From the NCBI GenBank assembly GCA_026184295.1, contig JAHCJK010000009.1, positions 1 through 64,000 of the forward strand: 64,000 nucleotides of DNA. The letters are read 5' to 3'. The notes beneath the pieces were generated by a model that saw nothing but the letters and a program-made list of their open reading frames with translations, ran no database searches and was not told where the DNA came from. Numbering within the stretch: position 1 is the stretch's first letter; each line of letters begins with the position of its first letter. Source of the DNA: Planctomycetota bacterium (GTDB taxonomy: Bacteria > Planctomycetota > SZUA-567 > H5-PLA8). Below are positions 41,257 to 63,948 of the stretch, piece by piece. The position numbers and the translations under genes were made by a program.

Positions 41257-41331
41257 GCGGGTGTAGCTCAGTGGTAGAGCGCGACCTTGCCAAGGTCGAA
41301 GTCGAGGGTTCGAACCCCTTCACCCGCTCCA
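41257..41331 (+). tRNA. tRNA-Gly (anticodon GCC)
   Basis: Acceptor arms GCGGGTG / CACCCGC pair in full; D-arm GCTC..GAGC; anticodon arm CGACC-TTGCCAA-GGTCG with GCC in the loop; T-arm GAGGGTTCGAACCCC-type with TTCGAA. Discriminator T and an encoded CCA (41329-41331) complete it. It is the likely attachment site of the element that follows. Confidence 0.97.
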
Positions 41332-41365
41332 TTTACAACTCAAATCAAAATTAGAAGATACAAGA

Positions 41366-41398
41366 ACGCGAGGACGGCCGATGAAGCCGTCCTCGCGT
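41366..41398 (-). terminator. Hairpin terminator after the integrase gene
   Basis: Perfect 13-bp stem ACGCGAGGACGGC / GCCGTCCTCGCGT with a seven-base loop, between the tRNA and the integrase stop. It has TTT on the plus side and TTCTTG on the minus side, so it may work both ways. Confidence 0.75.
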
Positions 41399-41402
41399 CG
41401 TT

Positions 41403-42770
41403 TCAGGCGTTTTTGGCCACATCTGACCCCACATCTCGCGGCTTTTCCGCTTCAACTGCAGTGGATTTGACGCGCCTACGAGCTAGATCGCGAGTGCCGC
41501 ACAGCACCTCCCACACAGCATGTGAGGACTCGTGGGGATCGACCAGATCCAAGTAGTGGCGCTCTTCCACGTCACGTCCGGCATGCCCGACTTGTACCCG
41601 CACGGAATCCGGACTCACCAGCCGACGCGCCCACGATATGTGAGTGATACGCAGACAGTACATATCCCGACCGATCAACCAGCGCTCCAAGCCCTGCTGC
41701 AACTTGCCGGCGATTCGGACAGTTGCGCGAGTCTGCGCCTCACGGGCTTCGATCTTCCTCTTGTCCTTCGGCGGGGTCCCGTCGAAGCCCCGCTTGCGAC
41801 CGGTGTAAAGCAAATGGCCAACTTCGATGGGTGATGTCCTTTCTGCATCAGCCTCGTCTTTTGGCCAATTCATCCTGACGAACGCAAGCACCATGCAGCG
41901 CTTGAAATCCGGGCCAAGATTTTCCCGAAACGGCTTGGAACCCCGATAGGAAGCGAAAAGGGGTTCTCCAGCGTCAGGATTTCCACGTTTGAGGAGGTAT
42001 GCCCTTAGGTCTTTGAAGAATGGGGCAGGAAGCGTAGATACCCCATTCCGTTTCTTACCGGTGCCAGGAGCAAGCTGAATCCGATCAGTCAATAGGTCCC
42101 CAACCTTGGCATCCAGGACAGCACCTGGCCGATTGCCAGTTAGCAAGATTGCTCGATAGATAATCTCAGACGGTAAGGGGCGGCTGAAAAACTCGTCGAG
42201 TTCAGCCGCTGCCGCCAGCACTTCACGGGCTTCCTCGGGCAGGAAAGCGCGGCGCCGCTTGCTGTATCCCTTCCACGGCAGGCGTTTCCATGCGCTCAAA
42301 GGATCGTATGGAATAAGCCCTGTCGAGGCCAGGAACCGCGTCAACTGCTTCAGTGGCGCCTGGAGGGAGAATACAGCGTAATGGTCGGAGATTGTGCCAT
42401 CCTGAACCAGCTTCATGCACTTGGCCGTCAGCACGCCGACATGCGCCAAGTCCGCACCCACCTGGATCTGCAGGTAGTTTAACCTGAGGAGGCGCTCCAG
42501 ATCGCTCTTTCGGCTATCCGAGGATATTGGAGCTTCCTTGAGGAATTTGGCGATCAATTCCTCGTATCCCATTTCCCAACCCAATTCCTGTGGTAGACCG
42601 ATTCGAACAGCCTCTCTCCTGTCTTGCCACTTTTTCAGCGCACGATCCGCCTCACGCTTCTCGCCGATCCAAATGCGCTTCCTGACGCGATGGCCGGTGA
42701 GAGGATCGGACACTCTGAATTCCCATCCGGATCGCCCATCTTTCTTGGAAGTAACGCGTTTTCCGCTCAT
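41403..42770 (-). CDS. Tyrosine site-specific integrase
   Basis: A 455-residue tyrosine recombinase that probably integrates and excises the element at tRNA-Gly. The catalytic part shows Arg in LLTGNRPGAVLDAKVGD, the RxxH-like box CLRITHISWARRL, the GH of VQVGHAGRD and the nucleophile Tyr in ERHYLDL. The N-terminal half (about 1-170) is a basic arm-binding and core-binding region. The RxxH box lacks the usual leading His, a mild deviation. The start follows the stop of the HTH gene by 4 bp, so the two are co-transcribed, as is common for int and xis. Confidence 0.9.
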   Translation of the reverse strand: MSGKRVTSKKDGRSGWEFRVSDPLTGHRVRKRIWIGEKREADRALKKWQDRREAVRIGLPQELGWEMGYEELIAKFLKEAPISSDSRKSDLERLLRLNYLQIQVGADLAHVGVLTAKCMKLVQDGTISDHYAVFSLQAPLKQLTRFLASTGLIPYDPLSAWKRLPWKGYSKRRRAFLPEEAREVLAAAAELDEFFSRPLPSEIIYRAILLTGNRPGAVLDAKVGDLLTDRIQLAPGTGKKRNGVSTLPAPFFKDLRAYLLKRGNPDAGEPLFASYRGSKPFRENLGPDFKRCMVLAFVRMNWPKDEADAERTSPIEVGHLLYTGRKRGFDGTPPKDKRKIEAREAQTRATVRIAGKLQQGLERWLIGRDMYCLRITHISWARRLVSPDSVRVQVGHAGRDVEERHYLDLVDPHESSHAVWEVLCGTRDLARRRVKSTAVEAEKPRDVGSDVAKNA

Positions 42771-44622: not shown

Positions 44623-45090
44623 TTGAATCAATTCGCCGAACTTTGGACCTATCAAGCACCAGGTTTCTTACTCACTGAAGGCCGGATTGACCATCGAAGG
44701 TCGCCGTATGCAGAATACCCTCGAACGTACCTTCCGAGCATCAACGAGCTTGCATCACAGTTAGGCACGGATCAGGTAGTTTGGTGCCATGGCTGTGCAG
44801 CTCACGTTTGGCATAAGACATCGATTCCAGCAATCAAATACTCCCTGCGAGTCCCTTTGAGCCAAATCTTTGCAGTGCTGGATAAGTGGGCATGGGAAAC
44901 GATCTTGGAGCAGGACACGGTTCCTCCGAACATCAAGGATCGCTACATTCAGCCGTGGAAGGTGCTTTTTAGAGTTACGGACTACTGGCATGACCCTGAT
45001 TCCACTGTGCTGCTTCGTCATCCTCTACTTTCAACATGGATCATCAAGCAAGCGCCTTGGGTTGCTCAGGATGAGACCGAACTTCAATAG
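44623..45090 (+). CDS. Hypothetical protein
   Basis: A 155-residue soluble protein. The start is a TTG at 44623, preceded at the right distance by GGAGG (44611-44615); the ATG at 44616 would end after 20 codons. It has Trp-rich segments (VVWCHGCAAHVWHKT, DKWAWETILEQ) and a CHGC pair, but no known motif. A perfect terminator follows its stop, and its stop codon is part of the stem. Confidence 0.6.
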   Translation: MNQFAELWTYQAPGFLLTEGRIDHRRSPYAEYPRTYLPSINELASQLGTDQVVWCHGCAAHVWHKTSIPAIKYSLRVPLSQIFAVLDKWAWETILEQDTVPPNIKDRYIQPWKVLFRVTDYWHDPDSTVLLRHPLLSTWIIKQAPWVAQDETELQ

Positions 45091-45120
45091 GGCCGCGCCG
45101 TTGCACACGGCGCGGCCCTA
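45088..45120. terminator. Bidirectional terminator hairpin
   Basis: Perfect 13-bp stem TAGGGCCGCGCCG / CGGCGCGGCCCTA with loop TTGCACA, between the converging genes ending at 45090 and 45124. There is no long T tract, but its position serves both. Confidence 0.8.
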
Positions 45121-45123
45121 TAC

Positions 45124-45964: not shown

Positions 45965-46765
45965 ATGCAACGTGAACACCTGAGGAACTTGACGGGGATA
46001 ACCACCGGGTACAACACGATCAATCGCGAGGAACGAAACCTTGCGGCGTTGCTATACGCAGCACTATTGAAATCCGGTAATCTGGCCGCCTTTCTATTAG
46101 AAGCCGAAAGCAGCCTTCCGGTCGTGGATGGCGAGATCGGCGTGTACTACGAATATGCGTTCCTGCGCGACCTGTGGAGCCGAAAGCTCCATGACAACGA
46201 AGGTAAACGAAATGCCGTCCTTCGCCTGCTACGCCCGTCGAATACCGCGACGCTGGAGCGTTGCTCGGTTGGCGAATTCAATGAACACTTCGGTGCCGTA
46301 CCGAAACCCTCTGAAGGCTATATCCAAAGCCCTGGAACCTGGAGCATCGGCCGGTTCACAGGAAAGGTGCCGGACAAAGAGGAGCTTCGACGGACCTGCA
46401 TATTCAAGTGGTCCTTCAATGCCAAACCAGACATCGTGATCCATACCTCACACGAAACAGCATTGGTGATCGAAGCCAAGTTGGAGTCCGGCGAAGGCTC
46501 TTATCCGAATTCCGCCAGTGAGATCGCTCTTTTCAAGGATCGTGGTCTGGAATTGGTCCGGCAGACTGAAGTGCAGAAATACCTAATGGAAGAACTGCTT
46601 GGTCTCCGTTGCGAATACCTGTTCCTCACTCAGGACGGTGAAACGGCACCAGACGGCTACAAGCCGATGTCCTGGACCAGGGCTTTTGGCGCAGTGGATA
46701 CTTCGGACACCTTACCGTTCGTGTCCGAATGGCTCAGACGTGTGAGTGGTCCAGGTGATAGCTAA
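45965..46765 (+). CDS. Putative PD-(D/E)XK nuclease-like protein
   Basis: A 266-residue protein whose centre has the pattern of a PD-(D/E)XK fold: KPDIVIHTSHETALVIEAKL, with Asp, then Glu-x-Lys (EAK) at the correct spacing. An N-terminal helical block and a C-terminal part follow. The ATG at 45965 has GAGGGAA a few bases before. Its stop codon overlaps that of the convergent WGR-ligase gene by two bases. It could be a restriction-like or repair nuclease; the fold is inferred from a short motif only. Confidence 0.5.
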   Translation: MQREHLRNLTGITTGYNTINREERNLAALLYAALLKSGNLAAFLLEAESSLPVVDGEIGVYYEYAFLRDLWSRKLHDNEGKRNAVLRLLRPSNTATLERCSVGEFNEHFGAVPKPSEGYIQSPGTWSIGRFTGKVPDKEELRRTCIFKWSFNAKPDIVIHTSHETALVIEAKLESGEGSYPNSASEIALFKDRGLELVRQTEVQKYLMEELLGLRCEYLFLTQDGETAPDGYKPMSWTRAFGAVDTSDTLPFVSEWLRRVSGPGDS

Positions 46766-47853
46766 CCCTCTTCCTCTGCATCTTCCTTACGAAACTTCAA
46801 CTGCGAGAGCTTGCATTCTGCCGTAAGGATATCGGTCCTGCGGCCAAGGTACACTGGTTGGTAAAGTGAGCCGCCATTGTACGCGTATAGGTAACGCACT
46901 TCTAACACTTGACCCTGCTGGGGGATTGCAGCATTCGGCGGGATCGTGACGTTGCCGACGGATACGAGCTTGAGCCCGTCCAGCACTTCCAGACCGACAC
47001 TGCGCTTCCCATTGCGGCTCGGCGCGACAATGCAGGAAGCCGTCGCGTAAAACTTCAGCTTCACCTGAGGCCCACCGCTGGCCGGCCGCCCCGGAGTGTA
47101 CGGTGCGTTGCGATTCTTCAGGACGACGCCCTCGGCCTTCCGTTCACATAGGAACCGAAGCAGATCGCGTTTGTCCCCAGTCTCCGCCGCCGTGGGCAGG
47201 ACCTCGATGGCTCCCCTGCGCCCGCCTACCAGTTCAAGCAGGATGCGCCAACGGTCCCGGTAGGCCAGCTTTTCCAGGGGCGAGTTGCCTCGCCGCAGAC
47301 AGTCAAAGGCATGTAGCCGGTCGCCTACGGCTTCGCCGTCGATCACGCAGTCCGAACGCAGCGCCTGTGCGGCCTGGACAATGGACTCCGGCAGGCCAAC
47401 CGTCAGCCCGCGCCGGTTAATTCCTGTGACCTCATCGCCGACTTTCCGGACTAGGGTGCGGCGCCCGTCCATCTTCTCCTGGAGCCAGTAAGCGTCGTCC
47501 CGGAGGTAGCGCTCGGCCTCTTCTTCGGTAATCGGGTTCAAGAGTTGGGGCCGCAGTCCCGAATCCTGCTCGGCCTTCTCGGTGCCCGAGCACGGCGTTC
47601 CGTCCGGCCCTTCGCTGTATCCTTTGGCAGTCTTCGACCGGATCAACGCGTCGTAGATCTTCTTGGCCTGCTCGAAGGACACCGGCGTGTTCGTTTTCGT
47701 GCCGGTCTGGAGCGTGCTGCCGCGCCGTCCGAAGGCGAAGTTCACGACGAACCCGCCTTCGCGTTCCTCGATGGCCAAATGGTAAACCTTGTCGCTGTTC
47801 CCCTCTTTGAAATAGAGGGTGGTGCTTTCTCTCGGCATGGATGTTCCTTTCAT
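46762..47853 (-). CDS. WGR-domain ATP-dependent DNA ligase
   Basis: A 363-residue fusion. Residues 10-80 form a WGR domain (LYFKEGNSDKVYHLAIEE, then FAFGRRGSTLQTGT), a DNA-end-sensing fold known from PARPs and some bacterial proteins. The rest is an ATP-dependent ligase: nucleotidyl Lys127 in LQEKMDGRRT (KxDGxR), motif III VIDGEAVG, motif IV AEGVVLKN and motif V VKLKFY, ending in an OB-fold-like region. It joins DNA nicks, perhaps in the element's replication or repair. Starts at 47853 and 47838 both have good ribosome binding sites (AGGGAG and AAAGGA). Confidence 0.88.
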   Translation of the reverse strand: MKGTSMPRESTTLYFKEGNSDKVYHLAIEEREGGFVVNFAFGRRGSTLQTGTKTNTPVSFEQAKKIYDALIRSKTAKGYSEGPDGTPCSGTEKAEQDSGLRPQLLNPITEEEAERYLRDDAYWLQEKMDGRRTLVRKVGDEVTGINRRGLTVGLPESIVQAAQALRSDCVIDGEAVGDRLHAFDCLRRGNSPLEKLAYRDRWRILLELVGGRRGAIEVLPTAAETGDKRDLLRFLCERKAEGVVLKNRNAPYTPGRPASGGPQVKLKFYATASCIVAPSRNGKRSVGLEVLDGLKLVSVGNVTIPPNAAIPQQGQVLEVRYLYAYNGGSLYQPVYLGRRTDILTAECKLSQLKFRKEDAEEEG

Positions 47854-48030
47854 GTGAACTCCCTTAGGGAATGTGGATGCGGAAAGCTGAAGTGTGCGCG
47901 GATAAATGAGAATCCGCTCGCCGCAGAGCATCTTCACCGGCCCGGAACCGGTGTAGCCCTGCGCTCCCGTACCGGTGGTACGAGTTGTGATGCCTTCAGG
48001 CTTGCGAGCAGATCTCAAGATCTGGAAGGA

Positions 48031-48258
48031 TTACGCGACGACGGCTGCGCGCCTGCGGCTCTGGCGTTTGGCGCGCCGAACTTCGGCGGCGAGCATGTCG
48101 ATGATGTTCTCCAATGCCTCGTCGATTAGCGCACCGTCCTCGTCCACGGCGCCCAGGCTGCGTTCCTGCGCGTCGATCTCGGCAACCAGCTTCTTGATTT
48201 CGGAAAACAGTTCGTCCCGGCGACGGGGTGAAATGAGCCTGACGTTTTCTGCGGTCAT
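48031..48258 (-). CDS. Small hypothetical protein
   Basis: A 75-residue protein starting at 48258, which has AAGGAG nine bases upstream. It is helical with acidic and basic ends (ELFSEIKKLVAEIDAQERSL, then RRAKRQSRRRAAVVA). The first of several small minus-strand genes whose order suggests one operon. Function unknown. Confidence 0.5.
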   Translation of the reverse strand: MTAENVRLISPRRRDELFSEIKKLVAEIDAQERSLGAVDEDGALIDEALENIIDMLAAEVRRAKRQSRRRAAVVA

Positions 48259-48348
48259 GGGCAGGGTCTCCTTGGCGGACAAACAAGAAACCCCGACGGA
48301 CCACCCGCCGGGGCACGAAACGATCCGGCGAGTGGTTCGGTGAATTGG

Positions 48349-49765: not shown

Positions 49766-50608
49766 TCACCGTCCTTGGCACGCGGTGCGGAACGGGCAAG
49801 CCGTACACCACCAGCCGTCCCGGGCCGGAAACACTCCGGCCCGGATGCCTTTCCAGACCTCGCCGACCTGCTCACGGAGCCGCAGCACGTCGGCTTGGGT
49901 CGCCTGCGGTTCCAGGACATGGACCACCGGCGTCTTGGCCTTCGTGACCACCACGAACCGGGGCCTGATCCGTTTCGCACCGACCTCGCGCAGGAGTGGC
50001 ATCAGCGCGTGGGCGTAGACGACCAGTTGCGGTAGCGCCTCGGCCACCTTCTGCTCGTTCCAGCGAGATTTGCTGGTCTTGATCTCGCTGACGATCAAGT
50101 CCGCGCCGTCCAGTTCCAGCAAGTCGAGCCGCGCCTCGACCGGAGGCGTGTCTGGCAGGAGCCGGAATCGATCTTCGTGTTCCAGGGCCAGGATGCGCCG
50201 ATGCGGCGCAGCCCGGACTTCCGCTTCGAGATGCTGCGTGAACGCGGACAGCATCCGCTCGGCCAGGCCATGCAGGCTGGCGGCATCGTCGCCCTTGGCG
50301 AACACGATCTCGGCCGCTTCCGCCGATTCTTCCTGCCAGGCACGGTCGTACTCGGCCAGCAGTTCGGCCAAGGCCGGGAACGGCCGACCTTCCAGGCGCG
50401 CCTGGAGCGCCACTTCGGCGGCACGGTGGAACGCGCCACCGAAAAGGAGCGCGGCGGACTTGCGCTCTTCCGGCGTGTCGGTCAAGTAGCGGTAGTTGAA
50501 CTTCTTAGGGCATTGCAGATACGTCGTGACGCCCGACCACGAAAGGTGGTCGAGCAAGCCTGCCTCCGTCTCAACAGACGGAGGCGCGGCTGCCGCATGG
50601 TTCGGCAT
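49766..50608 (-). CDS. Cas4/RecB-family nuclease with Fe-S cysteines (PD-(D/E)XK)
   Basis: A 280-residue nuclease like Cas4 and the AddB C-terminal domain. In order: Cys in YLQCPKKFNYRY, His in GAFHRAAEVA, Asp in VEARLDLLEL, the Glu-x-Lys pair in VSEIKTSKSRW, and the Cys triplet in WWCTACPFRTACQG. The four Cys match the Fe-S cluster of this group and the D-ExK set the nuclease site. AAGGAG precedes the ATG. No cas gene or CRISPR array is in the window, so it more likely serves the element's DNA processing or exonuclease function. Confidence 0.87.
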   Translation of the reverse strand: MPNHAAAAPPSVETEAGLLDHLSWSGVTTYLQCPKKFNYRYLTDTPEERKSAALLFGGAFHRAAEVALQARLEGRPFPALAELLAEYDRAWQEESAEAAEIVFAKGDDAASLHGLAERMLSAFTQHLEAEVRAAPHRRILALEHEDRFRLLPDTPPVEARLDLLELDGADLIVSEIKTSKSRWNEQKVAEALPQLVVYAHALMPLLREVGAKRIRPRFVVVTKAKTPVVHVLEPQATQADVLRLREQVGEVWKGIRAGVFPARDGWWCTACPFRTACQGR

Positions 50609-51951: not shown

Positions 51952-52161
51952 ATGGCGAGGATTCGACGCTCTGTCCACGCCGAATTGCTGCGCTCGTACG
52001 GCCTGCCCGTGAGCATCACGGCAGCATCGCGTGCCAGTGGAATTCCCTATTCGACCTTGATCACTCGAATTGCGAGAGGCAAGAACCTCACCGCACCGGT
52101 CCGCAAATATGGGCGGCATGATTTGATCATTCCAAACATGCCCAAGTTCAAATTGGAGTAG
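51952..52161 (+). CDS. Small HTH-type DNA-binding protein
   Basis: A 69-residue protein. GAGGTG lies before the ATG at 51952. It contains a helix-turn-helix-like segment (VSITAASRASGIPYSTLITRIARGK), with a basic C terminus. It is 57 bp upstream of the gene at 52219 on the same strand and may regulate the RT operon or belong to it. Confidence 0.55.
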   Translation: MARIRRSVHAELLRSYGLPVSITAASRASGIPYSTLITRIARGKNLTAPVRKYGRHDLIIPNMPKFKLE

Positions 52162-52218: not shown

Positions 52219-52902
52219 ATGATGACCTCGCGCAATTCACACATGAGAGAAGCCGTGTCGGTGTCGCGTGCCTGGAAGGTCGGCGGCTTGGCCAAGAAGG
52301 AGCAGGAGAAGGCTGGGTGGGGCAACGGTGTCCTGCTGCAGCTCGCGGCGCGGAGGTTCGAGGGGCTCGGCAGCGCCGCCATCCTGCTCCAGATGGTCCG
52401 CCTGAATGACCGGTGGCCGCTTGAGAAGGCCCAGGAAGCGGACCGGGTCGGCGTCAAACTCCGCGACCTGCCGAACCTGCTGGCGTTCGACGCCAGTCCG
52501 GCCGAACGCCGCGAGATGGGGACGAATCCCGCGATCCGCCAACGTGTGGAGAAACGGCTCCGGCTCCAGCAGCAGGTCTTCGCGGAGATCGAGGCCGGTG
52601 AACTGAAGGGCAACCAGGTCCGGGAGAGGGTTGCGGCCATCCGGAAGCAGCACCCGGACCTGTGGCCGGCCGGCTCGCAGAAGCTGCTCGCCCTGCGGGA
52701 CCACCGCGCAACCCGAGAGCGGACCGTGGCGTACCTCGACGCGTTGAAGTCCTCCAAGGCGCTGCTGCTGCGGGATGCGGGCAAGATCAGTCCTGAGTTG
52801 CAACACTCCATGCACGAGCAGGTGCGCGCCATCGAGGGCCTGCTGGGGTCCTTTGTGGCTCAGGTCGCGCTGCTGGACCGGCAGTCCGACCGGAACGACT
52901 AG
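52219..52902 (+). CDS. RT-operon protein 1, helical, unknown function
   Basis: A 227-residue protein, first of three tightly spaced plus-strand genes. The N-terminal 70 residues contain RAWKVGGLAKKEQEKAGW and a small helical domain; the rest is long amphipathic helices with many Arg, Glu and Leu (RLRLQQQVFAEIEAGELKG, then SKALLLRDAGKISPELQHSM). Polypeptides of this kind often bind RNA or assemble with an enzyme. GAGGGAGAGAG precedes the ATG. It is 27 bp from the RT gene. I do not recognise a family. Confidence 0.65.
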   Translation: MMTSRNSHMREAVSVSRAWKVGGLAKKEQEKAGWGNGVLLQLAARRFEGLGSAAILLQMVRLNDRWPLEKAQEADRVGVKLRDLPNLLAFDASPAERREMGTNPAIRQRVEKRLRLQQQVFAEIEAGELKGNQVRERVAAIRKQHPDLWPAGSQKLLALRDHRATRERTVAYLDALKSSKALLLRDAGKISPELQHSMHEQVRAIEGLLGSFVAQVALLDRQSDRND

Positions 52903-52929: not shown

Positions 52930-54516
52930 ATGCCTGAATTGCCCATGACCATCGCCGACACCTGCGCTCTGCTGCGGCGCGAGATGATCGACCGGATCGT
53001 CGGCAGCCTGCAGATCATTGGGGGTACCGATATCAGATGCACGGCTACCGATCTCAGCGAGCAGACGCAGCAGCGCGTCCTGGAACTCGGTTTCGGGGCG
53101 TTCGCGACGGAGCTGGTCAAGCGGCTGTTCCGGCCCAGCTGGCGGCTGGAGCCTTACGGCTTGGTCGCGGTCCCGAAGAGCAAGGGCGGCCACCGGTTCC
53201 TGACGCCGCCCGTTGACATAGACCGTCTCTGGCAGTGGGCGCTCTACGACATCCACTATCCCAGGATCAAGCCTTACCTGAGTCCATGCAGTTATGGGTT
53301 CGTGCGTGGCCGCTCCAATCAAGGAGCCGTTCGGGCGCTTGAAGATGCGATCCGAGCCAGACCGGACGGCGTGCTCATGCTTGCCGACGTTGCGCGGTGC
53401 TTCGCCAGCCTGCCCGTGGCCGGCCTGCTGAAGTGCTTATGGCCGGTCGTCAACGATCCTATGGCGATGTTCTTGATCGAGGCCGCGTTCCGGACCAGGC
53501 CGAGCCATGCCAGGATCAATCAGGTGCGGCGCGAGTTTCTCCGGGCTGGCACTGCAACGTTGGCCGACCTGAGGTACCTGAAGGCCCTGAAGCAGACGCG
53601 GCTCGGCATACCGGAAGGCTCCGCGCTCTCGGCCATCGCGTGCGTGCTTTATCTGCGGCCCTTGGTGGACTCGCTAGTCGCAGCGCTGCCGGGTGCCACC
53701 GTGATCCACTACGGCGATAACCTCGCTCTTTGGCTCAGGCCCGGCCAGGAGCGCATCGCCGAATCCGTACTGAAGTCCAAGTCGAAATCGTTGGGATTCG
53801 AGACCGAGACCGAGTCCGTGGTCGTGCCGCCATGCCATGACACCGCCGAGTTCCTGGGGATCGTGTTCGAATGGTCGAACTCGGAGATCCGGCTGAGTGC
53901 GCCGGACCGAGCCGTGGTTCGTATAGCCGACACCGTAAGGCGAATGCCCGAAGCTGTGGAGAAGGAAACCTTAGGACCGAAGTCGAACCGTAGGCAGCCG
54001 AAACCGATCCGGAACGTGCTCGACGGGATCGTCAGATTCGTATGGCCCGTGCTCAGCTACTACAGAGACACCGATATAGGACCGCTTCGCCAAGCGCTGT
54101 GGGACGCCATGGCCGGTTGGGTGGAATCGGACCGATATGCGGCACTGGGTAGGGTAGCTAGAGGTTGGATCGAGAGTCAAGGCCGATGGGACCGTTATGT
54201 CGATAGGAACGCGCTCGAAACCGATGTTCGAGAGTGGGAGGGCCGAATACCGGTAGAGCTGGGTGAGCCGTGGTCGATAGGGACAGTCGAGAAACGTGGT
54301 CGAGGCGAGGACATGATCGTGGAAATGCTGACTGGGCATTACGGGCAAGAAGGGGCCCGGCCAGCGCAGGGGTGGAGAGCCCATAGCTACCTCTGGGATG
54401 GTAGGTGCAATGAAGGGGGTGGCAGTTGCGCGCTGCTGAGGCAGGCGCCTGGCTCGCGTCCGCTCGCCGCGCCTGCCTCCAGCGCAACCGGGGGAAGGGC
54501 CAGTGGTTCAGTGTAG
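52930..54516 (+). CDS. Reverse transcriptase of an uncharacterised group, with YGDN instead of YxDD
   Basis: A 528-residue RT. Motifs in order: LVAVPKSKGGHRFLTPPVDI (79-98), SYGFVRGRSNQGAVRAL (121-137), the first catalytic Asp153 in LMLADVARCFASL, GIPEGSALSAIACVLYLRPLVD (226-247), YGDNLALW (261-268), LGFETETE and AEFLGIVFEW. Asp263 is kept but the second Asp of YxDD is Asn264. The C-terminal part (about 330-528) is an unknown domain, not a group II intron maturase or HNH domain. The TAG stop is in a hairpin loop. Some RNA viruses use GDN in an active polymerase, so activity is possible. It is not a typical retron or DGR type. Confidence 0.88.
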   Translation: MPELPMTIADTCALLRREMIDRIVGSLQIIGGTDIRCTATDLSEQTQQRVLELGFGAFATELVKRLFRPSWRLEPYGLVAVPKSKGGHRFLTPPVDIDRLWQWALYDIHYPRIKPYLSPCSYGFVRGRSNQGAVRALEDAIRARPDGVLMLADVARCFASLPVAGLLKCLWPVVNDPMAMFLIEAAFRTRPSHARINQVRREFLRAGTATLADLRYLKALKQTRLGIPEGSALSAIACVLYLRPLVDSLVAALPGATVIHYGDNLALWLRPGQERIAESVLKSKSKSLGFETETESVVVPPCHDTAEFLGIVFEWSNSEIRLSAPDRAVVRIADTVRRMPEAVEKETLGPKSNRRQPKPIRNVLDGIVRFVWPVLSYYRDTDIGPLRQALWDAMAGWVESDRYAALGRVARGWIESQGRWDRYVDRNALETDVREWEGRIPVELGEPWSIGTVEKRGRGEDMIVEMLTGHYGQEGARPAQGWRAHSYLWDGRCNEGGGSCALLRQAPGSRPLAAPASSATGGRASGSV

Positions 54517-54533
54517 AACCCTGGCCCTTCCCC
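54425..54533 (+). ncRNA. Two adjacent long hairpins over the RT gene 3' end, candidate structured RNA
   Basis: Hairpin A (54425-54488): inner perfect 11-bp stem GAGGCAGGCGC / GCGCCTGCCTC, extended outward by GTTGCG / CGCAAC and CGCTG / CAGCG. Hairpin B (54491-54533): perfect 13-bp stem GGGGAAGGGCCAG / CTGGCCCTTCCCC, then after one unpaired T a 5-bp stem GGTTC / GAACC with loop AGTGTA that starts the TAG stop. There is no T tract after B, so it is not a standard terminator. A conserved RNA overlapping the RT end is the best explanation; function unproven. Confidence 0.55.
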
Positions 54534-54563
54534 ATCGTTTCCTATGACCCCTTGAGGTGTTTG

Positions 54564-56099
54564 ATGAACCTGATCCGACTGATCCATACCCAAGTCCAGG
54601 ACCGCCGACTGCCGAACGCGCTGATTCAGGGCCGCGACTGGCGCTCGCTTGTCATTGGCAATGACCTGAACCGCGTCCGCCACTTGGCGATTATCCTGAA
54701 TGCCCGTGACGCCAACCAGCAGGACTGGCATTCGTACAGCCTGCGCGAATCGGCCATGCAGAAGGATTCCAGAACTGTCATGGGCCGCGACGACTACCGC
54801 GCCATCCTTTCCTTGAAGCGCCAACAGATGTCCTGGAACTTGAAGCGGGTCGGCGCGTCGGCGGACTGGCTGCCTAAATCGGATCAACTGATGCGGCAGC
54901 GCCTGGCCTTCGGCCACGAGGCTCATGACTACAGTTCCTCCATGGGGTGGCTGTATCGGAAGACCGACCAGGACCTGGAAGAATCGGACATCCGGTTTCT
55001 GGATGATCCGGCGTCGATGCGCAACCCGAGGAGCCTGCCGCTCCTCAGCCCGGATATCGGGCAGTACCAGTTGGTAGCGGTAGTCTCCTCCGGCATGTCC
55101 CGGGGGGAGGCGACATGGCTGGCCGCTTACCTGCACCACGATGACATCCTGGCGCAGCGGGAAGTGACCGTTGTTGTGGAAGACAGGGCCGCGTGGCGGG
55201 ATTTCTGGAACCAGCACGGGAAAGGTTTGAGGATCAGCGAAGAGGACCTGTCCACGTACCCGGATGAGTGGCCGAGGGCCAACGGACGGGTCCGGCTCGG
55301 CCATGTCTCCTGGCCTACCGGCACCTGGGTCGAGCAGATGAAGCGGCTCCGCAATCTGCTGGTCCAGATCCTCCGCGACGGCGGCAAGGCGTCGGACATT
55401 CGGGTCGTGACCGATTCGGTTGGCTACGCTTTCTATATCCGCACCGAATTGTTCGCGATGGGCCTCCCGATCCAATGCTCCGAGAGCGAGTTGCTGCCGG
55501 CCAATCCGGTTGCGCTCGACCTGATGTCGCTGATCACCCTGGTCCGGCACCGGGAACACCTGCAGGCGCTTTGCCGCTTGGCGCTCCATATCCCTGGCGA
55601 ATCCAGGCTGGATTTGTTGCGCGACTTCTTCCGCTCCGATCTGTCGGAAGATGATTTCCGTCCGTTTCTGACGGATCGGCGCGCTGTTGTCTCCCTGGAA
55701 GCCTGGCGCGAACTGGCACAGCACGCCGACTCGCACCCGGTCCAACTGCTGCATCGAGCTGGGGAATGCTACGAGAAATGGGCCGGACCGAATGCGGCAC
55801 TGCGAAGCGAGGAGATCCAAGAGGCTTTGGCCCAATGGTCCGAGCAGTTCGATTCGGCCGACGACATGATCCAGGCATTCTGGAGACTCCGCGCCATCAT
55901 CAGTCCGTGGTCCGGTTACCGGCCCGATTCCGGCATCCGGGTCAGCGGCACCGTCCCGACCGACTGCCGCGACATCGTGGTCCTGATGTCGGCGTTCGCG
56001 CCTGAACTCCATCCGGCCCAGTTCAAGGAGATCGGGCCGGACGTGTATCACGCGTATATTCAGGAGCGAAACGAATCAACCCATCAGGAGGTCGATTAA
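54564..56099 (+). CDS. RT-operon protein 3, possible degenerate UvrD-like protein
   Basis: A 511-residue protein. The ATG at 54564 follows GAGGT with good spacing; a longer frame from 54426 would run through the hairpins and is rejected. It has a Q-like and weak nucleotide-loop-like segment (IGQYQLVAVVSSGMSRGEAT), then IRVVTDSVGYAFYIRTELFAMGLPIQ, which recalls the second RecA-like half of UvrD helicases, and DIVVLMSAFAPELHPAQF near the end. The Walker A Lys is absent, so it is at best inactive as an ATPase. It may hold nucleic acid for the RT. The resemblance is weak. Confidence 0.6.
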   Translation: MNLIRLIHTQVQDRRLPNALIQGRDWRSLVIGNDLNRVRHLAIILNARDANQQDWHSYSLRESAMQKDSRTVMGRDDYRAILSLKRQQMSWNLKRVGASADWLPKSDQLMRQRLAFGHEAHDYSSSMGWLYRKTDQDLEESDIRFLDDPASMRNPRSLPLLSPDIGQYQLVAVVSSGMSRGEATWLAAYLHHDDILAQREVTVVVEDRAAWRDFWNQHGKGLRISEEDLSTYPDEWPRANGRVRLGHVSWPTGTWVEQMKRLRNLLVQILRDGGKASDIRVVTDSVGYAFYIRTELFAMGLPIQCSESELLPANPVALDLMSLITLVRHREHLQALCRLALHIPGESRLDLLRDFFRSDLSEDDFRPFLTDRRAVVSLEAWRELAQHADSHPVQLLHRAGECYEKWAGPNAALRSEEIQEALAQWSEQFDSADDMIQAFWRLRAIISPWSGYRPDSGIRVSGTVPTDCRDIVVLMSAFAPELHPAQFKEIGPDVYHAYIQERNESTHQEVD

Positions 56100-61870: not shown

Positions 61871-63790
61871 ATGAGAGCACAAATGCTATCGAAAGCCGAA
61901 GTCCTTGCGCGCCTTCGCGACCTCGCCCACTGGCAGGAAGACGCCAGACGGGAGATGTCGAGGAAAGGCGCTTCCGCAGATGATCTGGCTCGGCACGCAG
62001 ATCTCTGCGAGAGGGTGAGAGCGCGGGCTATGCTGCTGCTCTCGGGTGGCGAGGCGGAAATTGTTTCGACGCGGGTCGAGACCGCTAAGTCCACCGAAAA
62101 CTTGGCGCGGGTTGTTCGGTTCCGTGGGTATTTCAAGACGTACTCCGGAACCAAAATCCGCCCCAGAGACGAACACGAGGGGCGGGATCTGCTGAGCCTC
62201 CTCGACGTGCCCATCGATTCCACGGACGATCCGGCCGAGGCGTATGAGTCGTTCGGAGCGTTCGTGTTTGGTGAGGCCGACTCCGAGCGGCACACTATCG
62301 AGACGATCCCGACCAGCGATCCGGACATGCTGCGACGTTTCCAGCGGTCGGAGGCAACGGTCGTCTATGCGGTGACCGGTATCCCGCTGCCGTCGCTGCT
62401 CGATAATGAGTACCGTCTGTTTTTGCTGGACCTGAAGCGCATCGACACCGCGCTGGACTTGGTGGAGCCGATCCCGGGTGAACTGGAGGACGCCCGGCAA
62501 CTCATCGAGGTGCAGCGCGAACAGTCGGTGCTCCCGGCCCTGGTCAACATGGTGTGCGTAGCGCTGGGCATCATCGATACTGGCGATCCACAGTATCGCG
62601 AGGCGCTAGAGGTCGCCGTCCTGCAGGGCGCCAGCCACGGCAGGATAAACGGCGAGAGCGGACGTATCCATACGCTGCGGATCGGACCGCCGGGCTGCGG
62701 CAAGGGCCTGATCGCACGGGCCTTTCAGTTGTGCCAGCCCATCCATAAGCGCGTCGAGGCGCAGTGCGTGACCGAGGACGGGTTGTACGGAAACTCCGGT
62801 TACAGCGGTGGCAAGCGTGTCGTGCGGGCAGGATTGATTCCTGCCGCGAATCTCGGCGGGTTCTACGTCGAGGATGTTCATCAGGCGAACCATGTGAAAA
62901 ATAATCGCCTGATGATCACGTTTGGAAGCACCATGGAACTTGGGCGGTGTGACGCGGCCAACGCGAGTCGCACCTCTTACGAGGCGCTCGTGGCGTTCAA
63001 CGTTGATGCCAATCGGCGTAGCGATGTCGAGGGGCATCGGCACCGGAACGGAAAGTTGAAGGGGCTGGAGCGGATCTCGGCGGACACGGGTGTTCCCAAA
63101 AACATCCTGACGCGGTTCGACTCCATCATCGAGTTCCATCGCGATTCGAAACAGCAGTTGGAACTCTCCCTCAGGCTGGCTCGACGGCCGGAAACGCAGG
63201 CCGATTCCAAACAGGGTCAGGAACCGGGCAGGTTGGTGCGCGTGGTTCTGGCATACCTGCGCTCGACGGTCCCCAACGTCGAGATCGGGCCGGATGCGGC
63301 GCAGTACCTGGAGGCGCGGTACCGCAGTATCGTCAATGCCCGCGCATCCGTGATGCAGGAACATCCGGACTACGCGGATTTTCTGGCGAGGGGCAGCAAG
63401 TCTTACAAAAAACTCGCCATGGCCCACGCCCGGCTCTGCAATCGGGACTACGTGACCCCGGCCGACATCGATGCGGTATTCGTCCATGTCGCCAGGAAAT
63501 TCGAGACGCTCTTGACCTGGCTGGTCGGGGATCTCGATGACGAACTGGATCAGAACGCGAGGAAGAAGGCGCGGATGCAGCTCATCCGCAGCAGCTTCGC
63601 CGGGGAACGGGTCACCCTTGGGGAGCTACACCGCCTGATCCCTGGTGCCTCCGACAAGAGCATCAAACGCTATATGGAGGAGGTCTGTGGCGGAGCCCGG
63701 AACCCGGACGGTTCCTGGACGGTTCCGGAGTACGAAAACCTGCCGCAATTGCCGGGCATCTGCCCGGATAGCGACGGCAATCCGCAGTAG
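61871..63790 (+). CDS. MCM-like AAA+ replicative helicase
   Basis: A 639-residue protein resembling archaeal and eukaryotic MCM helicases. The AAA+ core has Walker A GPPGCGKG (272-279), a Walker B-like GGFYVEDVHQAN (329-340, with Glu-Asp), an extended block after it (AFNVDANRRSD), and the MCM-like VPKNILTRFDSIIEF (408-422) with Arg415 in the arginine-finger position. The C-terminal part has YVTPADIDAVFVHVAR and a winged-helix-like end (VTLGELHRLIPGASDKSIKR). The N-terminal domain is divergent. It probably unwinds DNA for the element's replication. The start is 61871 or 61883. Confidence 0.7.
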   Translation: MRAQMLSKAEVLARLRDLAHWQEDARREMSRKGASADDLARHADLCERVRARAMLLLSGGEAEIVSTRVETAKSTENLARVVRFRGYFKTYSGTKIRPRDEHEGRDLLSLLDVPIDSTDDPAEAYESFGAFVFGEADSERHTIETIPTSDPDMLRRFQRSEATVVYAVTGIPLPSLLDNEYRLFLLDLKRIDTALDLVEPIPGELEDARQLIEVQREQSVLPALVNMVCVALGIIDTGDPQYREALEVAVLQGASHGRINGESGRIHTLRIGPPGCGKGLIARAFQLCQPIHKRVEAQCVTEDGLYGNSGYSGGKRVVRAGLIPAANLGGFYVEDVHQANHVKNNRLMITFGSTMELGRCDAANASRTSYEALVAFNVDANRRSDVEGHRHRNGKLKGLERISADTGVPKNILTRFDSIIEFHRDSKQQLELSLRLARRPETQADSKQGQEPGRLVRVVLAYLRSTVPNVEIGPDAAQYLEARYRSIVNARASVMQEHPDYADFLARGSKSYKKLAMAHARLCNRDYVTPADIDAVFVHVARKFETLLTWLVGDLDDELDQNARKKARMQLIRSSFAGERVTLGELHRLIPGASDKSIKRYMEEVCGGARNPDGSWTVPEYENLPQLPGICPDSDGNPQ

Positions 63791-63796
63791 AGGAGG

Positions 63797-63948
63797 TGGT
63801 GGACAAGAGGCTGGACAACCATGTGGTCAGCCGGGTGGACACCGGGCTCGACAACAGGTCGGACATGCCGGACTCAGCCGAAGGGCGTGGGGCTGTGTAA
63901 TGGCTGTCCGGTCTGTTGTCCGCCTGGTTGTCCATCCAGATGTCCACC
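63797..63948. repeat. Phased GGACA boxes in two opposed blocks, candidate origin iterons
   Basis: Six 12-base units begin at 63801, 63813, 63825 (GGTCA), 63837, 63849 (CGACA) and 63861. After a gap of 39 bases, four reversed boxes (TGTCC) begin at 63905, 63917, 63929 and 63941, again exactly 12 apart. The outer arms also pair: GTGGTGGACA and CTGGACAACC with GGTTGTCCAT and TGTCCACCAC. It lies directly after the MCM-like gene and before the next gene, as expected of an iteron origin or an operator array. Function is not proven. Confidence 0.55.

What the first reader, a model, noticed from the sequence alone, without database searches (positions are those of the whole stretch)
54425..54533. Two perfect hairpins over the RT 3' end, with the stop codon in a loop
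Stems of 11 bp (extended outward) and 13+5 bp lie side by side, and the RT stop codon begins in the loop of the second. Neither has a T tract. Protein-coding DNA rarely contains such long perfect complements by chance, so the sequence is probably kept for an RNA. It could be the RT's template, primer or a regulatory RNA, comparable in role but not in place to the RNAs of retrons and DRTs, which usually lie upstream.
Basis: partly seen in the sequence, partly recalled or inferred. Interest (0 to 1): 0.78.

Follow-up and report, generated by a model that had tools for sequence, protein, structure and literature searches.

The report
Conserved double hairpin ending RT gene
Two RNA hairpins over the end of an unusual bacterial reverse-transcriptase gene keep their shape in a distant relative through matched base changes, so they are probably a working RNA that belongs to this rare four-gene system.

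Summary
The hairpins are real and conserved. HP1 (54430-54485, 22 bp with two fixed 5' bulges) and HP2 (54491-54533, 13+5 bp) fold far better than shuffles (z -8.1). It carries the same four-gene block and the same two hairpins at the same place. HP1 differs at eight bases: six form three exact compensatory pairs, two lie in the apical loop, and none breaks a pair. Codon positions within HP1 show RNA-type rather than protein-type constraint, and RT codons 441-499 just before it show almost no coding constraint. An HP1 covariance model finds only these two RT loci in 392 Planctomycetota genomes. It is therefore not a dispersed repeat, terminator, chance palindrome or known Rfam family. The stop codon in the loop is incidental: in the relative it lies between the hairpins. 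The RT is group II-like, without an intron or maturase match, and has altered motifs (PEG, YGDN). Best reading: a cis-encoded RNA partner of the RT, overlapping its 3' end. That role is inferred. A mRNA-processing or stability element is the main rival. Only two loci are known.

The parts
51952..52161 (+). small conserved HTH-like ORF (69 aa), first gene of the conserved block
   Evidence: homologous ORF in L012 5017-5226; weak HTH_psq hit, E 0.014, below cut-off
52219..52902 (+). conserved 227-aa protein of unknown family, found only beside this RT
   Evidence: 62% identical in L012; 2 of 392 Planctomycetota genomes; weak ParB-HTH hit for the homologue, E 0.02
52930..54516 (+). reverse transcriptase ORF (528 aa); altered catalytic motifs PEG (228-230) and YGDN (261-264); protein-level constraint fades after about codon 440
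   Evidence: Pfam RVT_1 E 3e-7, TIGR04416 group II RT 78 bits, GsI-IIC RT E 4e-11; codon-position rates; motifs
54430..54485 (+). HP1: 22-bp hairpin within the RT CDS, with 2-nt 5' bulges at fixed places, a 2x2 UC/UC internal loop and a GCTCGC-N4-GCTCGC apex
   Evidence: three compensatory pairs, 0 broken; fold z -8.1 for HP1+HP2; covariance model hits only the two RT loci in 392 genomes
54491..54533 (+). HP2: 13+5-bp hairpin with 1-nt 5' bulge, spanning the RT stop codon; in the relative wholly non-coding
   Evidence: arms; same position and shape with different sequence in L012
54514..54516 (+). RT stop codon TAG, begins in the HP2 loop (position not conserved)
   Evidence: relative's stop between HP1 and HP2
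54564..56099 (+). 511-aa protein of unknown family directly downstream, with its own Shine-Dalgarno-like GAGGTG, last gene of the conserved block
   Evidence: 59% identical in L012; 2 of 392 genomes; no Pfam, PADLOC, PHROG, NCBIfam match

Best explanation
The two hairpins are one conserved RNA module of about 105 nt (54429-54533) at the 3' end of the RT message. Shown: the structure is under selection, independently of the protein, and was found only with this RT operon. Inferred: it is the cis-encoded RNA partner of the RT. It would be read through as the dispensable tail of the RT coding sequence (HP1) and the following gap (HP2), cut or trimmed out of the operon transcript as a stable fragment, and bound by the RT, with HP1 (fixed bulges, nearly invariant sequence) as the recognition or template part and HP2 (shape kept, sequence free) as the stabilising end. 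The RNP would act with the companion proteins as an accessory system of an integrated element. Whether the RNA is template, primer or scaffold is not decided.
For: Same two hairpins at the same place in the only relative found. HP1: 3 double compensatory changes, 2 apical-loop changes, 0 broken pairs; random placement of 8 changes keeps all pairs with P 5e-4, and with >=3 double changes P 1.6e-5. HP1 bracket structure identical in both folds; HP2 keeps its shape although its sequence and length changed, including one A-U to U-G change that pairs only on the + (mRNA) strand. The hairpin window has the lowest RNAalifold energy of 224 windows over the operon (-62 against mean -17, sd 10). Codon-position substitutions: RT body about .2/.1/.45, codons 441-499 .57/.47/.62, HP1 .26/.05/.16. 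HP1 and the RT co-occur: 2 genomes with both, 390 with neither. RTs without an intron that act with a cis-encoded ncRNA are established (DRT2/9/10, PMC12632851; DRT3, ncRNA downstream, PMC13174585).
Against: Only two loci, so covariation rests on one pairwise comparison (the shuffle control with two sequences is uninformative: 65 of 500). No evidence of a separate transcript, RT binding or cDNA. The RT's best matches are group II and CRISPR RTs, not the UG RTs known to use such ncRNAs, and YGDN/PEG raise doubt about ordinary catalysis. HP1 lies inside translated sequence, where ribosomes would unfold it.
Confidence: 0.45

Rival explanations
1. Operon-internal mRNA element: the hairpins are a processing or stability site (RNase III-type cleavage, 3'-exonuclease barrier) that sets the ratio of RT to the downstream 511-aa protein; the RT does not use the RNA.
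For: Lies exactly between two genes of one operon in both species; no T tract and no terminator-like site; the downstream gene has its own SD and start about 30 nt after HP2; HP2 keeps shape, not sequence, as a barrier hairpin would.
Against: HP1 keeps its sequence and bulges (48 of 56 nt) beyond what a generic barrier needs; single copy and exclusive to this RT locus.
Confidence: 0.32
2. DNA-level hairpin: a folded single-stranded or cruciform site of the integrated element (recombination, replication or protein-binding site).
For: The operon lies on an apparent integrated element beginning at tRNA-Gly 41257-41331 with an integrase-like ORF; long perfect arms; the folded - strand is about as stable.
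Against: A U-G pair in HP2 of the relative forms only on the + strand and gives a gap in the - strand fold; fixed position inside one operon; no second copy as a site pair would have. attC-like ends would read RYYYAAC...GTTRRRY, here the order is the reverse (sequence; own knowledge).
Confidence: 0.13
3. Remnant of a group II intron (domains V/VI lie 3' of the RT ORF in such introns).
For: RT is group II-like; position 3' of the RT.
Against: No Rfam intron match, strict or permissive, in the RT region of either locus; no maturase domain match.
Confidence: 0.03
4. Chance palindrome or a feature of the protein C-terminus.
For: The window holds other long perfect stems.
Against: Compensatory changes, codon-position rates and conserved position.
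Confidence: 0.02

Closest known systems
Class 2 defence-associated RTs with cis-encoded ncRNA (DRT10/UG17, DRT9, DRT2, DRT3)
   Same: RT operon with a compact, strongly folded, co-conserved RNA and companion proteins; in DRT3 the RNA is also downstream; the HP1 apex has a direct repeat GCTCGC-N4-GCTCGC, formally like the A-B-A' template of DRT10 RNA (PMC12632851)
   Different: RT matches UG17 only weakly (30 bits) and group II/CRISPR RTs better; the RNA overlaps the RT CDS 3' end; YGDN instead of YxDD; no known partner protein; no defence evidence
Group II intron-like RTs without intron RNA (G2L4; Planctomycete G2L5)
   Same: closest sequence family of the RT domain; no intron RNA
TnpB/IS200-605 omegaRNA (own knowledge)
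   Same: a guide/partner RNA that overlaps the 3' end of its protein's ORF
   Different: unrelated protein; no transposon end or guide found here

Membership tests
Class 2 UG/DRT system | RT of a UG class 2 family | tested here: not met
   PADLOC: generic RT 81 bits, RT-Cas1 63 bits, UG17 30 bits, UG4 17, Drt2 12; NCBIfam group II RT 78 bits, Drt2 22 bits against cut-off 390
Class 2 UG/DRT system | conserved structured ncRNA encoded in cis with the RT | tested here: inconclusive
   met as conserved structure and co-occurrence; expression as a separate RNA and RT binding not testable
Class 2 UG/DRT system | RNA-templated cDNA and phage defence | not testable with these tools
   needs RIP-seq, cDNA sequencing, phage assays
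Group II intron | intron RNA domains around the ORF | tested here: not met
   no Rfam intron match
Group II intron | maturase (GIIM) domain and YADD | tested here: not met
   only RVT_1 in Pfam; YGDN
Retron | NAxxH and VTG motifs in the RT, msr-msd RNA upstream | tested here: not met
   both motifs absent; structured module is downstream
Diversity-generating retroelement | TR/VR repeat pair with changes at A | tested here: not met
   no second copy of 53700-54700 in the window, none of 54410-54545 in the genome
Intrinsic terminator | G+C hairpin followed by a T run | tested here: not met
REP-type dispersed palindrome | many copies per genome | tested here: not met
   single copy

The most novel reading that the evidence does not exclude
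A new RT family, group II-like and with a YGDN active site, uses an RNA that overlaps its own coding sequence. The direct repeat GCTCGC-N4-GCTCGC at the HP1 apex, kept in both species while N4 differs (GTCC / TCCC), serves as an A-B-A' template for tandem-repeat DNA, a telomerase/DRT10-like mechanism reached in another RT lineage. Caution: much of the repeat follows from palindromic GC/GC pairing around a UC/UC loop.
Probability: 0.08. Interest if true: 0.88.

Novelty: new variant of a known kind. Interest (0 to 1): 0.6.

Why it matters
The RT-partner RNAs of bacteria described in the papers read here belong to UG-type RTs. Here an orphan, group II-like RT with a deviant active site has a compact RNA element that is selected as RNA although half of it lies inside the RT reading frame. 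If it is the RT's partner, it adds an architecture in which the RNA sits in the gene's own tail, which screens of intergenic regions would miss, and another lineage in which an RT works with a dedicated RNA. RIP-seq on a cloned 4-kb operon would decide it.

Tried and rejected
Frameshift fusion RT-downstream protein: the downstream frame is open through the hairpins in the window, but the frame relation differs in the relative (window frames 1 and 0, relative 1 and 1), so rejected. Stop codon in the loop as a signal: not conserved. DGR template: no repeat. attC site: wrong order of ends. Downstream protein as degenerate UvrD-type helicase: suggested by eye, not supported by profile comparison with UvrD proteins of these genomes (a first attempt used wrong frames for some). 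AlphaFold models of RT and downstream protein: pLDDT about 36, fold search without significant match, not used. More relatives: none in viral contigs, phages, plasmids, or a further 283 genomes (the distant RT hits in plasmids are mostly annotated as group II intron RTs). MAFFT alignment A7 misaligned HP2, so HP2 pairs were compared by structure, not by column.

Full report
Observation. The hairpins are as described. HP1 has perfect arms 54438-54448/54469-54479 and a 6-bp outer stem; HP2 has perfect arms 54491-54503/54521-54533 and a 5-bp inner stem. Folded together they reach -80.4 kcal/mol, z -8.1 against dinucleotide shuffles. Perfect stems of 13 bp with a short loop are expected 0.1 times per 64 kb, but the window has six, so stem length alone would not prove function. 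The element is single copy in the genome and matches no Rfam family.

Relative. The RT (52930-54516) has one relative among the genomes searched: G004, which is JABTUM010000001.1, a Planctomycetota MAG of the same family and another genus. The RT is 64% identical over its length. The same gene order is kept: a 69-aa HTH-like ORF, a 227-aa protein (62%), the RT, the hairpins and a 511-aa protein (59%). Each of the three larger proteins was sought in 392 Planctomycetota genomes and found in the same two only. Surrounding DNA differs, apart from two short shared stretches, and the window's copy appears to lie on an element that starts at tRNA-Gly with an integrase-like ORF (the integrase call is by eye, Pfam gave no match).

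Covariation. In the relative both hairpins stand at the same place. HP1 aligns without gaps over 56 nt with identical predicted structure: 6 bp, 2-nt 5' bulge, 11 bp, 2-nt 5' bulge, 3 bp, 2x2 loop, 2 bp, 4-nt loop. Of eight differences, six are three compensatory pairs (54439/54478 A-T to G-C; 54448/54469 C-G to T-A; 54451/54468 G-C to A-T) and two are in the apical loop; no pair is broken. In a simulation of eight random changes, P of keeping all pairs is 5e-4 and of doing so with three double changes 1.6e-5. The tool's shuffle control cannot judge two sequences (65 of 500), but sliding the partners by 1-3 columns drops pairing from 100% to below 48%. HP2 is more diverged: a core GGGCC/GGCCC and outer G-C pairs are kept, one A-U pair became U-G, one pair was lost on both sides, and the upper stem was replaced by another that still pairs after a 1-nt bulge. 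The hairpin region has the lowest consensus folding energy of 224 windows along the aligned operon.

RNA rather than protein constraint. In the RT body substitutions fall mostly at third codon positions. Codons 441-499 show similar rates at all positions and 29% identity, so protein-level conservation effectively ends near codon 440. In HP1 (codons 501-519) third positions change less than first positions, with six amino-acid changes and two silent ones. The stop codon is in the HP2 loop here but between HP1 and HP2 in the relative, so HP2 need not be translated at all.

Distribution. A covariance model of HP1 hits only the two RT loci in 392 genomes, at E about 1e-15, one copy each. This speaks against a REP-like repeat and ties the element to this operon.

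The RT. Its best matches are group II intron RTs (NCBIfam TIGR04416, 78 bits, below the curated cut-off; GsI-IIC RT in the PDB, E 4e-11) and the RT part of RT-Cas1 proteins. UG17, the RT of DRT10, scores 30 bits. There is no maturase match, and the motifs are PEG for PQG and YGDN for YADD, in both species. The second active-site aspartate is thus an asparagine, which may mean altered or lost polymerase activity. Published surveys note group II-like RTs without introns in Planctomycetes that fit no stable group (G2L5; PMC4244168); I could not compare sequences.

Mechanism. Shown: a two-hairpin element selected as nucleic acid, in cis to this RT and found only with it. Probable: it acts as RNA of the operon strand, because it lies within the apparent transcription unit and the U-G pair in the relative forms only on that strand. 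Inferred: it is the RT's partner RNA. The strong retention of sequence in HP1, bulges included, looks like a protein-binding or template RNA more than a plain stability hairpin, whereas HP2 could be an end-protecting hairpin. An operon-internal processing or stability element, without use by the RT, remains a serious alternative.

Known systems. DRT2, DRT9, DRT10 and DRT3 use cis-encoded ncRNAs; in DRT10 the template has an A-B-A' repeat (PMC12632851), in DRT3 the RNA lies downstream (PMC13174585). The present locus works like these at most; it fails the RT-family test for membership. The GCTCGC-N4-GCTCGC apex resembles an A-B-A' template but may only reflect the symmetric stem.

Limits. Two loci, one pairwise comparison, no expression data. 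Structure predictions of the RT and the 511-aa protein were too poor to use, and an idea that the 511-aa protein is a degenerate UvrD helicase was not supported.

Noticed in passing
window 41257-42770: tRNA-Gly followed by an integrase-like ORF (41403-42770, -, no Pfam match) with a perfect 13-bp stem between them (41366-41398): probable left end of the integrated element that carries the RT operon.
   Followed up: partly
window 63778-63934; L011 14859-15017: 78% identical stretch shared with the relative's flank: tail of a small ORF (...VDTGLDNRSDMPDSAE) followed by GGACA/TGTCC inverted repeats (GTGGTGGACA...TGTCCACCAC).
   Followed up: partly
window 48048-48155; L011 7283-7390: 81% identical stretch (83-aa ORF on - strand 48031-48282) shared upstream of the operon in both genomes and also in G006: another common module of these elements.
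   Followed up: partly
window 46762-48018, 49766-50608 (-): WGR-domain ATP-dependent DNA ligase and a phage-type exonuclease close to the RT operon on the same element.
   Followed up: no
window 45087-45121: Perfect 15-bp stem with 5-nt loop between convergent ORFs, the longest perfect stem in the window; possibly a terminator.
   Followed up: no
window 61871-63790 (+): 639-aa ORF with weak MCM/AAA similarity near the right end of the window.
   Followed up: no
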